From positions 1 to 22,254 of the forward strand of contig MCFE01000980.1 in the NCBI GenBank assembly GCA_002104905.1: a stretch of DNA of 22,254 nucleotides, read 5' to 3'. This DNA is from Basidiobolus meristosporus CBS 931.73 (Eukaryota; Basidiobolomycota; Basidiobolomycetes; Basidiobolales; Basidiobolaceae). The first letter of the stretch is position 1. Each line of letters begins with the position of its first letter. The notes beneath the pieces were generated by a model. The model searched no databases, had not been told where the DNA came from, and saw only the letters and a program-made list of their open reading frames with translations. Of this stretch, positions 5,710 to 13,901 are shown one piece after another. The translations under genes and the position numbers were made by a program.

Positions 5710-5944
5710 TGTTGTGGTAAGGTCATCAGCATCTTCAAACCATCACAACTGGAGACCTACCCCTGAACTATCCATTGAGTATTACTAAAATTAGGCAAAA
5801 CGGCTAAGACATGCATATAGCAAATGTAGTTCACCAAAGTATAAATTAGCAAAACATGTTAGAAAATAAAGCAGTCTTTCCTTCCAGCCTCAACCTTTGA
5901 ACACCAATCTCTGGTTAACACCCTTGGTAGTACATACTTCAACA
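5710..5944 (+). repeat. Solo LTR, family D, 10 nt upstream of a tRNA-Ala pseudogene
   Basis: An insertion absent from the homologous locus at 13053-13591. It begins TGTTG, ends CAACA (5-bp inverted ends) and is flanked by GTAT (5706-5709 and 5945-5948). GTATAAAT (5839-5846) and AATAAA (5865-5870) about 20 nt apart give the usual LTR promoter and poly(A) arrangement in plus orientation. Exactly 10 nt separate its end from the tRNA-Ala start. Confidence 0.85.
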
Positions 5945-5954
5945 GTATGTATAT

Positions 5955-6027
5955 GGGTGTCCAGCTCAGATGGTAGAGTGCTTGCTTAGCATGCAAGAGG
6001 CACTGGGATCAATACTCAGGTCCTCTG
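5955..6027 (+). pseudogene. tRNA-Ala(AGC) pseudogene
   Basis: Paralogue of 13102-13174. All four CpGs of the intact gene are changed to TpG or CpA, and there are further changes at positions 4 and 8 and at the 3' acceptor end. The TTCG-type T loop is altered. Anticodon AGC is still present. Probably not functional. Confidence 0.88.
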
Positions 6028-6147
6028 TTTTGGATTATTCTAAATGAGTTTCATCAATCTTTTGAATGCTATATTTATGTGAGTAGATGCAATTAGTGGC
6101 TAGGCAAAATTGTATTTTAATGAATGCTTCAATTAGCAAAAAAGATG

Positions 6148-6185
6148 AGGACGCAGGCGGATTTGACCCACTGAGCTATATGTCC
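6148..6185 (-). pseudogene. tRNA-Cys pseudogene, anticodon arm deleted
   Basis: Only 38 nt remain compared with 72 in 13295-13366. The 34 missing bases lie between two ACCAC direct repeats of the intact gene and include the anticodon stem-loop. This is a typical short-repeat deletion. Two CpGs at the 3' end survive; the third is TpG. Confidence 0.9.
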
Positions 6186-6327
6186 AATAATTACTCTATT
6201 GGGATTCATTGTTTCATTCTTCCATATCACTATCTGGCTTAAATATCATATACAGACAACCATTCAAAACACAAAAATTATTGCTCAATTCCAGGAAAGT
6301 GAAAAACAAAGAATAAAAAATGTACAT

Positions 6328-6400
6328 CACCCAATGTGGGGGTCAAACCCACAGCCTTGAGATTAAGAGTCTCATGCTCTACCAATTGAGCTAGCCAGGC
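6328..6400 (-). pseudogene. tRNA-Lys(CTT) pseudogene
   Basis: Full-length paralogue of 13509-13581 in which all five CpGs have become TpG or CpA. The changes include the T-loop C (TTCGA to TTTGA on the tRNA strand) that is part of box B. Anticodon CTT is retained. A family-B LTR starts 10 nt upstream of its 5' end. Confidence 0.88.
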
Positions 6401-6410
6401 CTTATTGAGT

Positions 6411-6738
6411 TGTTACAGAGTAAAGAGTCACCTGATGTTAAGTGACATCAACACATACAAAGACAACTTAGTAGTCAGGGAAAGGCAAATCAAAGACAAA
6501 TCACCAGACTCACAGTAAGGTATAAATATCAAACAAGCAACTAAGTAAAAAGGGAGTTTTTGGTTATAGGCAGAAAAGCATAGTGGGAACAAAAACTAGC
6601 TTAAATATATTTCTACAAGGTCAACACCCTAACCTTTTAAAGAGATATTCTTACACTACCCTGTCAAATCTACAAGATAACATACACATTATCCCTTTTT
6701 GTACTCTCTAAAGGACATTACTCTTTAAGTACATAACA
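6411..6738 (+). repeat. 5' LTR of relict family-B element
   Basis: Starts TGTTACAG and ends ATAACA, giving 5-bp inverted ends (TGTTA/TAACA). A TATAAATA lies at 6521-6528. The right end is set by the PBS 4 nt beyond and by alignment with copy 1. The left end is set by the point where homology with the tRNA locus stops. No second LTR copy flanks the element, so the boundaries are inferred. Confidence 0.7.
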
Positions 6739-6742
6739 GAAT

Positions 6743-6761
6743 TAGTGCTCACAGCAGGGGG
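6743..6761 (+). other. Primer-binding site matching tRNA-Ile(AAT), family B copy 2
   Basis: TAGTGCTCACAGCAGGGGG matches 17 of 19 bases of the tRNA-Ile(AAT) 3' complement. The mismatches (second and last base) differ from the one in copy 1, so the two copies together support all 19 positions. Confidence 0.75.
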
Positions 6762-6849
6762 TAGTATTAAACAAAAGGAATCTATCTCTTACAAAAAGAA
6801 CAGAAGATGTCCATGCTACAATGGGAACAAAGACTGGTCACAATTAGCA

Positions 6850-11979: not shown

Positions 11980-12287
11980 ACACTTATAATATATGGTATG
12001 ATCGTTGGACATTTGATTTTCTAAAATCATAATGTAACTATCATACGCTATTCATTTCTTGGACAACAGGTAGATATACTATCCAATCCCATAGCAGACC
12101 CCAATAGACTTTTTTCCATACCTAAAATAAACATTTGTAATTATGCTGGAAACCGTGGTTGCGATGTACTTAAATTTGGCATATTCCTTGGCCAGTGCAC
12201 TTGACACGCGGTACACAAAACTTGCTATACATTGACCTTATGTATAAACACAGTCAAGTACATTACTATCCTTTCCAATAAACATAT
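11980..12287. other. Spacer, no gene recognised
   Basis: Non-coding, AT-rich spacer between divergent tRNA-Trp and tRNA-Val. Confidence 0.4.
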
Positions 12288-12361
12288 GTCTTCGTGGTGT
12301 AGTTGGTTATCACGTCTGTCTAACACACAGACGGTCCTCGGTTCGAATCCGAGCGAAGACA
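12288..12361 (+). tRNA. tRNA-Val(AAC)
   Basis: 74 nt, acceptor GTCTTCG/CGAAGAC, loop CTAACAC (AAC), box B GGTTCGAATCC, TTTT shortly downstream. Confidence 0.96.
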
Positions 12362-12625
12362 TTACTTTTCCTGACCCTCTAAATTATTTGGATCAAGTAT
12401 GCCTAGCGTAGATACTAAATCGGGCTTTGTGCGTATTACAACCAAAGGTAGTCAGTTGCCCCAAGTAACTAAATAGAGGGCTCTGTTGTGATGGAAAAAT
12501 TGCATTTTTACATTACTTGTCAATCAAGAATTACCAAGGGGAATCCACAACATTAATTGCTGCTGCAGCCCAGAGTACCCCATTCTTACTAACAATCCAT
12601 TTTGACAGGAAAACAAACAAAAGAA

Positions 12626-12697
12626 GGGCTCAACTGGGAATTGAACCCAGGACCTCTCCCACCCTAAGGGAGAATTATACCACTAAACCATTGAGCC
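12626..12697 (-). tRNA. tRNA-Pro(AGG)
   Basis: 72 nt without intron. Acceptor GGCTCAA/TTGAGCC, loop TTAGGGT (AGG), T arm CTGGG-TTCAATT-CCCAG, TTTT downstream. Confidence 0.95.
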
Positions 12698-13101
12698 AGT
12701 ACCAGTGCAAACAACCGTCTTAGAAAATACGGAAATCTGATCTGTTAGGCTTGATTACTTTTCACATTTAGTGTACTTCTAGATTGCGCTATATATGGGA
12801 AAACGGCAGAAGCTCTTAATAGCGTAGCCACAGAGAGATTTCTATTAACCAGATTGTATTAACAAACCGAAAGAAACAAAAGCATCTGTAGTGTGGATAA
12901 CAAAAATGCTCCAAAATAGCCATCAGTCATACATCAATGAATGTCCCCTTGATCGCACAAAGTTGATAATAAGAGACATACACATTACCATTGTTAACAG
13001 GGTCCTCAATTCAATGCTAGCCAGTATTTTCTTTGCCATGCGAGTACATCTATTGAAGAATTAAAAAAGATAAGTGGTTTTCCACCGAGGTGTATATATA
13101 T
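12698..13101. other. Spacer; right part is shared with the left duplicate
   Basis: Non-coding. From 13053 on it is homologous to 5667 onward. No gene recognised. Confidence 0.45.
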
Positions 13102-13174
13102 GGGGGTCTAGCTCAGATGGTAGAGCGCTCGCTTAGCATGCGAGAGGCACTGGGATCGATACCCAGGTCCTCCA
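13102..13174 (+). tRNA. tRNA-Ala(AGC)
   Basis: 73 nt, anticodon AGC (loop TTAGCAT), anticodon stem CTCGC/GCGAG, T arm CTGGG-ATCGATA-CCCAG, TTTT immediately downstream. Intact counterpart of the pseudogene at 5955-6027. Confidence 0.95.
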
Positions 13175-13294
13175 TTTTGGATTATTCTAAATGAATTTCA
13201 TCAATCTTTTGAATGCTATATTTATGTGAGTAGATGTAATTGGTGGCTAGGCGAAATTGTATTTTAATGAACGCTTCAATTAGCAAAAAAGATG

Positions 13295-13366
13295 AGGACG
13301 CAGGCGGATTTGAACCACCGACCTATTGATCTGCAGTCAATTGCTCTACCACTGAGCTATACGTCC
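13295..13366 (-). tRNA. tRNA-Cys(GCA)
   Basis: 72 nt, acceptor GGACGTA/TGCGTCC, loop CTGCAGA (GCA), T arm GGTGG-TTCAAAT-CCGCC, TTTTTT terminator (13285-13290). Confidence 0.96.
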
Positions 13367-13508
13367 AATAATTACTCTATTGGGATTCATTGTTTCATTC
13401 TTCCATATCACTATCCGGCTTAAATATCATACACAGACAACCGTTCAAAACACAAAAATTATTGCTCAATTCCAGGAAAGTGAAAAACAAAGAATAAAAA
13501 ATATACAT

Positions 13509-13581
13509 CACCCAACGTGGGGGTCGAACCCACAACCTTGAGATTAAGAGTCTCACGCTCTACCGATTGAGCTAGCCGGGC
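13509..13581 (-). tRNA. tRNA-Lys(CTT), target of the adjacent retrotransposon
   Basis: 73 nt, acceptor GCCCGGC/GTTGGGT, loop CTCTTAA (CTT), T arm GTGGG-TTCGACC-CCCAC, T-run terminator downstream. The 3' LTR of the intact element begins 10 nt upstream of the mature 5' end, about where Pol III would start transcription. Confidence 0.96.
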
Positions 13582-13591
13582 CTTATTGAGT

Positions 13592-13901
13592 TGTTATGAA
13601 TCGAGGGCAAGCGGAGGAGGACCGGAGGATGTCCAATACGAATCAGAGAGGTTATCTGAATAGTTGATGAACCGGTAAAAGGTTGATGCTTTATTGATAG
13701 TGTTCAAAGGAGTTTATATAGAGATAGCCTCGGAGGGAGAGCTTCCGATAACGTAGGGCAAGCTTCCAAAAGGAGGGTTCAAGATGTATTAAATAACGTG
13801 TGTATCACTGAGTGCGATTGATCGTCTGTGTGGAATTCCAGGTGTTCGATCAGTAGTGTTCAAGTGATCGGTAGTGACTAGTTAGGATTTAAATCATAAC
13901 A
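13592..13901 (-). repeat. 3' LTR of intact element
   Basis: 310 bp, identical to 18660-18969. On the minus strand it holds TATATAAA (13713-13720) and AATAAA (13690-13695), which places the U3/R boundary near 13690. It contains 13 CpGs, in contrast with the coding region. Confidence 0.97.
13690..13695 (-). promoter_or_regulatory. Polyadenylation signal AATAAA in the 3' LTR
   Basis: AATAAA on the element's coding strand, about 18 nt past the TATA box. In the 3' LTR it is placed to direct 3' end formation of the genomic transcript. The copy in the 5' LTR is at 18758-18763. Confidence 0.55.

What the first reader, a model, noticed from the sequence alone, without database searches (positions are those of the whole stretch)
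5710..13592. Three LTR boundaries lie exactly 10 nt upstream of tRNA genes
The solo LTR ends at 5944 and its tRNA-Ala starts at 5955; the relict LTR starts at 6411 and its tRNA-Lys 5' end is 6400; the intact element's LTR starts at 13592 and its tRNA-Lys 5' end is 13581. The spacing is 10 nt each time, for three LTR families. Yeast Ty3 is known to insert within a few nucleotides of Pol III start sites, so this suggests TFIIIB/TFIIIC-guided integration. All three sites fall in one tRNA trio or its duplicate, so the sample is small.
Basis: partly seen in the sequence, partly recalled or inferred. Interest (0 to 1): 0.88.

Follow-up and report, generated by a model that had tools for sequence, protein, structure and literature searches.

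The report
Retrotransposons that land beside tRNA genes
In a Basidiobolus-type fungus, several families of LTR retrotransposons insert again and again at one spot about ten letters in front of tRNA genes, which puts a targeting habit known from yeasts and slime moulds in a distant fungal lineage.

Summary
Mapping these families in the same 89-Mb genome turned three coincidences into a rule. Of 67 near-full-length insertions examined, 43 lie 6-14 nt upstream of a mature tRNA or 5S 5' end (36 of 58 after merging similar flanks; 0.59% expected). Of 26 with a matching target-site duplication, 23 lie there, two sit in LTR stacks behind a tRNA, one is off target; 25 are 4 bp. A control family had no Pol III gene within about 150 nt in 20 of 20 copies. 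Other LTRs stack at the same spot; orientation is family-specific. The host is Basidiobolus or close kin. The LTR3 element is Ty3/gypsy without a chromodomain. Best explanation: its integrase docks on the Pol III initiation complex (TFIIIB), as in Ty3; the partner is inferred. New variant of a known kind. The window's own element has mismatched flanks: recombination or misassembly is possible there.

The parts
5710..5944 (+). LTR1, solo LTR of 235 nt; its 3' end faces the tRNA-Ala at a gap of 10 nt
   Evidence: strand inferred from the PBS-like TGGTAGCAGC stretch behind LTR1-like copies on C185 and C650
5706..5709 (.). left copy of the 4-bp target-site duplication GTAT (right copy 5945-5948)
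   Evidence: empty paralogous site at 13077-13112
5955..6027 (+). degenerate tRNA-Ala, trio copy 1
   Evidence: Rfam 31.0 bits
6328..6400 (-). tRNA-Lys(CTT), trio copy 1; spacer 6401-6410
6411..6738 (+). LTR2 (328 nt), 5' LTR of a relict element that points away from the tRNA; PBS-like stretch 6743-6760 matches the tRNA-Ile 3' end plus CCA but for one base in this copy
   Evidence: tRNA-Ile genes at 11594-11667 and 20013-20088 read by eye
6739..8620 (+). decayed internal part of the LTR2 element (zinc-knuckle and protease-like pieces, broken frames); end approximate
   Evidence: ORFs; repeat D6 with 1402-1574; domains judged by eye
13077..13112 (+). empty site: the paralogue of the LTR1 target upstream of tRNA-Ala copy 2
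13102..13173 (+). tRNA-Ala(AGC), trio copy 2
13294..13366 (-). tRNA-Cys(GCA), trio copy 2
13509..13581 (-). tRNA-Lys(CTT), trio copy 2; spacer 13582-13591
13592..13901 (-). 3' LTR of the LTR3 element (310 nt), 10 nt from tRNA-Lys
13913..18262 (-). single gag-pol frame, 1449 aa: Ty3-type capsid, protease, RT, RNase H, integrase; no chromodomain
18647..18658 (-). primer binding site TGGTAGCAGCGA, complementary to the 3' end (plus CCA) of a tRNA-Met of initiator type
   Evidence: that the tRNA-Met on C197 is the initiator is judged by eye
18660..18969 (-). 5' LTR of the LTR3 element, identical to the 3' LTR; outer flank GTAT does not match GAGT on the other side
332..662 (.). control family LTR8, solo copy, 5-bp duplication GTTAC, no tRNA near
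4298..4646 (.). control family LTR8, second solo copy, 5-bp duplication AATCA; nearest Pol III gene found 1.3 kb away

Best explanation
These are LTR retrotransposons (LTR3 shown to be Ty3/gypsy) whose integrase carries the cDNA to assembled RNA polymerase III initiation complexes and joins it there with a 4-bp stagger, 9-12 nt upstream of the mature tRNA 5' end (6 nt upstream of 5S), close to where Pol III is expected to start. A-box and B-box promoters lie inside the gene, so the target survives and can be hit again; each new copy lands between the gene and the previous copy, which builds stacks of LTRs. Shown: position, precision, duplications, an empty site, several families at one spot, stacks, recent activity (identical LTR pairs), and the absence of a chromodomain in LTR3. 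Inferred: that the dock is TFIIIB (TBP-Brf1-Bdp1), that the contact is made by the integrase C-terminal SH3-like domain or the short tail behind it, and that the families without an intact frame here used the same route.
For: 43 of 67 near-full-length insertions (36 of 58 merged) at 6-14 nt upstream of a tRNA or 5S 5' end, null 0.59%, binomial 2e-65 for 36 of 58; 23 of 26 insertions with matching duplications there; 25 of 26 of those duplications 4 bp; 0 of 66 insertions within 30 nt of a 3' end; 11 tRNA labels plus 5S, with different flanks; paralogous empty site for LTR1; stacks whose nested duplications fall at the same place, e.g. CCTA, CCTA, CTAC, CACT at one tRNA-Thr on C732 (read by eye); control LTR8 0 of 20; gag-pol aligns with Ty3 in the Ty3-TFIIIB structure 7q5b, E 7e-142, and the integrase model matches 7q5b chain A, TM 0.65. 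Ty3 docks by SH3-TBP and chromodomain-Brf1 contacts (PMC8632968, section 8 read).
Against: 24 of 67 insertions are outside the window. Many are stack members or have an unknown or rearranged end, but C791 (matching duplication ATTC, identical LTRs) has no recognisable Pol III gene, and C1150, C216, C1220, C964:21877 and C1:163438 have none within 14 nt at the end examined. LTR1 is in the window in only 3 of 7. Of 46 insertions with both flanks known, 20 have no matching duplication. The Brf1-binding chromodomain of Ty3 is missing here, so the contact cannot be the same in full. Transcription starts were not mapped. The 5S gap (6) differs from the tRNA gap (about 10). Five of 15 full LTR pairs are not clean cases: four with unequal flanks, the window's own among them, and C791.
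Confidence: 0.82

Rival explanations
1. The integrase is tethered to RNA polymerase III itself (as Ty1 is to AC40/AC19), not to TFIIIB.
For: LTR3 has no room for Ty3's Brf1-binding chromodomain; it ends in a tail of about 29 residues behind the SH3-like domain, the last 11 of low confidence. Ty1 uses a 16-residue C-terminal segment that contacts AC40 and AC19 (start of the abstract of PMC10050235, seen in the listing).
Against: Ty1 insertions spread over about 1 kb (PMC5911963 Table 1), while these fall within a few nt, as Ty3 and Tj1 do.
Confidence: 0.12
2. Insertion is random, but only copies beside tRNA genes survive selection.
For: tRNA flanks may be tolerant sites (general knowledge; not tested here).
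Against: Precision of a few nt; pairs with identical LTRs show it too; LTR8, with 3209 first-look candidates, had no Pol III gene near in 20 of 20 fetched copies.
Confidence: 0.02
3. The tRNA genes were carried along or duplicated together with the LTRs, so the spacing was inherited rather than made by separate insertions.
For: tRNA matches recur at regular steps in this genome, and 8 groups of copies share flanks.
Against: After merging those groups 36 of 58 remain in the window; isotypes, spacers and duplications differ; a duplication lies between LTR and tRNA; an empty paralogous site exists.
Confidence: 0.02
4. A DNA motif at the site, not a Pol III complex, attracts the integrase.
For: Some sites were hit repeatedly at the same 4 bp (GTAT, GAGT, CCTA).
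Against: The 4-bp duplications and the spacers differ from gene to gene; what is shared is the distance to the gene.
Confidence: 0.02

Closest known systems
Ty3 of Saccharomyces cerevisiae
   Same: Ty3/gypsy; inserts beside the Pol III start of tRNA genes (PMC5911963 Table 1); gag, RT and integrase align
   Different: 4-bp instead of 5-bp duplications and one gag-pol frame instead of two (Ty3's 5 bp and two frames recalled); no vestigial chromodomain, which binds Brf1 in Ty3
Tj1 of Schizosaccharomyces japonicus
   Same: inserted 5-11 bp upstream of mature tRNA ends, also at 5S (PMC4600332 passages); LTR1 shares its forward orientation
   Different: Tj1 has a chromodomain (PMC10085805 passages), 5-bp duplications and a proposed self-primer; here PBSs match tRNAs. 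Tj1 was forward at all Pol III genes; LTR2 is reverse at proximal sites, LTR3 either
DGLT-A of dictyostelids
   Same: single ORF, CCHC gag, no chromodomain, upstream of tRNA genes (PMC5006619 passages), either orientation (PMC5911963 passage)
   Different: gap 13-33 nt in D. discoideum rather than 9-12; Amoebozoa; kinship not tested by a tree
Tyl3, Ylt1, Tyl6 (Yarrowia) and beta/Tca8 (Candida)
   Same: Ty3/gypsy elements just upstream of tRNA genes (PMC5911963 Table 1)
   Different: Ascomycota; not compared by sequence here

Membership tests
Ty3/gypsy LTR retrotransposons (Metaviridae) | protease-RT-RNase H-integrase order between LTRs | tested here: met
   LTR3: protease 401-508, RT 643-802, RNase H 890-989, integrase zinc domain 1079-1130 and core 1148-1242. 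LTR1, LTR2, LTR4 and LTR7 were not tested by protein
Ty3/gypsy LTR retrotransposons (Metaviridae) | LTRs bounded by TG...CA, target duplication, primer binding site | tested here: met
   TG...CA ends; matching duplications in 26 of 46 insertions with both flanks known; PBS matches a tRNA-Met 3' end in LTR3 and the tRNA-Ile 3' end in LTR2 (by eye)
Pol III-targeted LTR retrotransposons (functional class) | sharp preference for a few nt upstream of Pol III genes | tested here: met
   43 of 67 (36 of 58 merged) against 0.59% expected
Pol III-targeted LTR retrotransposons (functional class) | other Pol III genes hit too | tested here: met
   LTR3 6 nt upstream of 5S on C16 and C615, with similar flanks, so counted as one site; no U6 insertion seen in the loci scanned
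Pol III-targeted LTR retrotransposons (functional class) | integrase contact with TFIIIB or Pol III | not testable with these tools
   no binding data
Ty3 proper | vestigial chromodomain C-terminal to the integrase SH3 domain | tested here: not met
   polyprotein ends about 29 residues after the SH3-like fold; the Ty3 chromodomain spans 66 (residues 446-511); no Pfam chromodomain in LTR3
Ty3 proper | 5-bp target duplication (recalled) | tested here: not met
   25 of 26 matching duplications are 4 bp
Tj1 / Tf1-sushi chromoviruses | chromodomain and self-priming | tested here: not met
   no chromodomain; tRNA-matching PBS
DGLT-A | single ORF without chromodomain, CCHC gag | tested here: met
   CFYCKEQGHKVNEC read in the ORF
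DGLT-A | monophyly with dictyostelid DGLT-A in an RT-RNase H-integrase tree | not tested
   no DGLT-A sequence was fetched

The most novel reading that the evidence does not exclude
A guild of at least five LTR families shares one Pol III landing site in an early-diverging fungus by a docking contact different from Ty3's (no chromodomain, 4-bp stagger), with fixed but opposite orientations in two families (LTR2 5'-end first, LTR1 3'-end first) and free orientation in a third. The insertions form stacks in order of arrival, a readable chronicle at single tRNA genes, and recombination between identical copies may shuffle the tRNA clusters.
Probability: 0.35. Interest if true: 0.72.

Novelty: new variant of a known kind. 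Interest (0 to 1): 0.55.

Why it matters
Precise Pol III targeting by LTR elements is tabulated for ascomycete yeasts and dictyostelids (PMC5911963 Table 1). Finding it in a Basidiobolus-type fungus, in an element without the chromodomain that binds Brf1 in Ty3, makes two questions testable: how many ways an integrase can read the Pol III start complex, and what fixes insertion orientation. The authors of the Tj1 paper knew of no other wild-type LTR element with a fixed orientation (PMC4600332 passage); LTR2 looks like a second, with the opposite sense. The stacks may give a relative clock of retrotransposon waves at single genes.

Tried and rejected
Random insertion with survival, hitch-hiking or duplicated tRNAs, and a target DNA motif were considered and rejected (see rivals). 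A search of viral contigs for the gag-pol gave no relative. The genome's tRNA set could not be listed whole: 63 of 3931 candidates were scored, so distances were measured only in fetched loci. TBP was too conserved to place the host; CCT1 did. The last 80 residues of the polyprotein found nothing among the PDB sequences. In the stretch fetched for the right-hand LTR3 of C1220 there was none, and the stretch fetched for C216 looked like internal sequence of the element. Literature searches for Pol III-targeted LTR elements in early-diverging fungi or Basidiobolus; no title listed reports such a case, but listings were capped (at 20 papers, 12) and only open-licence PMC papers are held.

Dropped rows: of 107 BLAST hits, 24 truncated ones and one overlapping duplicate were left out; an LTR2 copy on C1150 was dropped by a faulty filter and is added back as a miss in the 67 and 58. 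Nineteen of 49 LTR2 matches got no locus of their own (some lie inside other loci), and 33 of 73 LTR2 and 25 of 65 LTR3 first-look candidates were never scored.
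Full report
What is in the window. The window is contig C1291 of an 89.0-Mb genome in 1311 contigs. Rfam finds 24 tRNA genes and one 5S rRNA gene in it. A trio tRNA-Ala/Cys/Lys occurs twice (5955-6400, where no tRNA-Cys is called, and 13102-13581). LTR1 (5710-5944) is a solo LTR with duplication GTAT, 10 nt before tRNA-Ala copy 1; trio copy 2 is its empty site. LTR2 (6411-6738) heads a decayed element 10 nt before tRNA-Lys copy 1. LTR3 (13592-13901 and 18660-18969, identical) bounds an element with one open 1449-aa frame, 10 nt before tRNA-Lys copy 2. 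LTR2 and LTR3 begin at the same nucleotide of the paralogous flanks.

The host. A chaperonin gene (CCT1) of the same genome is 94% identical to Basidiobolus ranarum and 83% to B. meristosporus; the next listed match is at 81% (the database is clustered at 90%). The host is therefore Basidiobolus or very near it (phylum Basidiobolomycota in the taxonomy used). TBP agreed with a fungus but did not resolve it further. The species was not fixed.

Mapping the other copies. Searches with the three LTRs gave 11, 49 and 41 places; 33 of 73 LTR2 and 25 of 65 LTR3 first-look candidates were not scored. In the fetched loci 107 BLAST hits were found; 24 truncated hits and one overlapping duplicate were set aside. 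Of the 82 near-full-length LTRs left, 81 made 66 insertions; the last, an LTR2 copy on C1150, had been dropped by a faulty filter and is added back as a miss, so 67. Gaps to the nearest mature tRNA or 5S 5' end fall at 6-14 nt in LTR1 3 of 7, LTR2 21 of 30, LTR3 19 of 30: 43 of 67. Merging copies with similar flanks leaves 36 of 58 (2 of 6, 16 of 23, 18 of 29). The merge is conservative: it joined two LTR2 copies at different tRNAs (C1168, C169) because LTR4 lies behind both. The commonest gaps are 9, 10, 11 and 12. In the same loci 1159 of 197,624 positions (0.59%) would qualify by chance, which gives a binomial probability of 2e-65. The 6-14 range was set after the first table was seen. Of the 66 insertions none lies within 30 nt of a 3' end. 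tRNA names are ARAGORN's; its intron-bearing 'Asp' on C1258 is probably Tyr.

Insertions with a duplication. Of 46 insertions with both flanks known, 26 have matching duplications, 25 of 4 bp and one of 5 bp; 20 have none. Of the 26, 23 are in the window (three of these are paralogous copies of one site, C1238/C356/C40); LTR1 on C732 and C878 lie further out in stacks; C791 (ATTC) has no Pol III gene that ARAGORN or Rfam could find, even at E up to 5.

The misses. Of the 24 outside the window, several are stack members behind another LTR: LTR1 on C732 and C878; LTR2 on C502 (two copies), C732, C824, C878 and C477; an old LTR3 lies behind the C878 stack. LTR2 on C428 (275 nt) and the older C805 copy (847 nt) were not chained to a stack. 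LTR3 on C439 lies 10 nt from a stretch with A-box- and B-box-like motifs that no program calls a tRNA; LTR3 on C713 lies 10 nt from a duplicated 5' half of tRNA-Ile (both judged by eye). The other end of C1306 proved to lie 9 nt from a tRNA-Leu; this is not in the 43. C16:11006 sits at the tRNA-Ala target itself (GGTGTAT|) on its distal side, with a foreign right flank. C1150, C216, C1220 (next to a broken LTR2), C964:21877, C1:163438, C185, C650 (LTR1) and C477 (old LTR3) remain unexplained or have an unknown end, and C791 is off target.

Controls. LTR8 (332-662 and 4298-4646) is a commoner family (3209 first-look candidates, 40 scored) with 5-bp duplications in 9 of 22 full-length copies, no other length matching (many of the rest are single ends of full elements, judged from their repeated flanks). 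It had no tRNA, 5S or U6 within about 150 nt in 20 of 20 fetched copies (one copy has only 19 nt on one side). The preference is not a property of every LTR family in this genome.

Stacks. Two more LTR types cut from the C732 stack, LTR4 (226 nt) and LTR7 (225 nt), use the same place: LTR4 is nearest to tRNAs on C477, C502 (two copies) and twice on C732, at gaps of 8-12 nt. On C732 the tRNA-Thr carries, from the gene outward, LTR4, LTR2, LTR7 and LTR1 with duplications CACT, CTAC, CCTA and CCTA that can all be read from an ancestral site CCTACCAAGA (read by eye; the script scored the LTR2 there as unmatched, because LTR4 split its copy). On C878 LTR3, LTR4, LTR1 and LTR2 are stacked, with older pieces behind. 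Where one family occurs more than once in a stack, the copy nearer the gene is usually closer to the reference (C1045, C1050, C824 with its paralogue C805, C878 for LTR2 and for LTR3), but C913 goes the other way; the LTR2 reference is itself a relic, so this is only a hint of age order.

Orientation. At gene-proximal positions LTR2 faces the tRNA with its 5' end in 21 of 21 rows (16 of 16 merged; two-sided p 3e-5); among the stacked LTR2 copies one, on C477, faces the other way. LTR1 faces with its 3' end in 3 of 3 proximal rows (2 merged) and in both stacks. LTR3 goes both ways (10 and 8 merged, p 0.81). Ty3 can insert both ways through a TFIIIC contact (PMC5911963 passage), and Tj1 was forward at every Pol III gene.

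The element. LTR3 gag-pol holds Ty3-type capsid, protease, RT, RNase H and integrase. It aligns with the Ty3 chain of the Ty3-TFIIIB structure 7q5b (E 7e-142), but ends 28 residues after the aligned part, while the Ty3 chain has 103 more. An AlphaFold model of the integrase (mean pLDDT 82, pTM 0.65) shows the SH3-like C-terminal barrel and then only a short tail with no second barrel; Foldseek lists foamy virus intasomes first and 7q5b at rank 9. No chromodomain family was found in LTR3, nor among the 25 families shown of the 28 that matched any of the 28 proteins of the alignment; several listed plant and algal relatives do carry PF00385. The LTR3 PBS matches 12 nt of a tRNA-Met of initiator type, that of LTR2 the tRNA-Ile 3' end. 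Ten of 13 LTR3 pairs and 2 of 2 LTR2 pairs have identical LTRs, so both families were recently active, unless conversion keeps the pairs alike.

Mechanism. A position fixed relative to the gene, not to a sequence, and the 5S case point to the initiation complex. In Ty3, the SH3 domain touches TBP and the vestigial chromodomain touches Brf1. Here only the first contact could be kept; DGLT-A also targets without a chromodomain, so the feature is not without precedent. TFIIIB as the dock is my inference; direct Pol III tethering is the main rival.

Mismatched flanks. Four of 13 LTR3 pairs (C1, C1291, C16, C439) have unequal outer flanks. C1306 (left) and C1 (right) together look like the two halves of one insertion with TTAC at tRNA-Leu, whose empty form is in the window at about 19500-19548. 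Either ectopic recombination between copies or joins made by the assembler through a 5.4-kb repeat would do this; the data do not decide.

Verdict. Observation confirmed, interpretation supported, the protein contact open. A new variant of a known kind; no earlier report in this lineage turned up in the eight literature searches listed under Tried and rejected.

Noticed in passing
L105 (C1306:11960-12420) and C1:152334; window 19481-19548: The left junction of one LTR3 element and the right junction of another look like two halves of a single insertion (TTAC) at tRNA-Leu(CAA): ectopic recombination or misassembly.
   Followed up: partly
L032, L060, L071: A U6 snRNA gene lies about 113-125 nt downstream of a tRNA-Thr in the same orientation at three loci, a possible joint Pol III unit.
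   Followed up: no
G000 contigs C964, C426, C1258: tRNA matches recur at regular steps (about 5.2 kb on C964, 4.0 kb on C426, 4.3 kb on C1258), which suggests tandemly repeated tRNA clusters.
   Followed up: no
window 1140-1990 and 2050-3300: Remnants similar to the LTR2-type internal region and, on the minus strand, pol-like remnants with an integrase-like ORF (2547-2867, by eye) lie between the two LTR8 solo LTRs.
   Followed up: no
C1:157443/163438, C615:12549/20912, C964:16194/21877: Pairs of LTR3 LTRs in opposite orientation with like ends facing each other (5'-5' or 3'-3'), perhaps inverted or recombined elements.
   Followed up: no
window 18405-18632: A 20-nt tandem repeat in the leader of the LTR3 element, between the 5' LTR and gag.
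   Followed up: no
window 8750-8834: ARAGORN cannot name this tRNA in one mode and calls it Asp with an intron in the other; the GTA in the loop suggests tRNA-Tyr with an intron.
   Followed up: no
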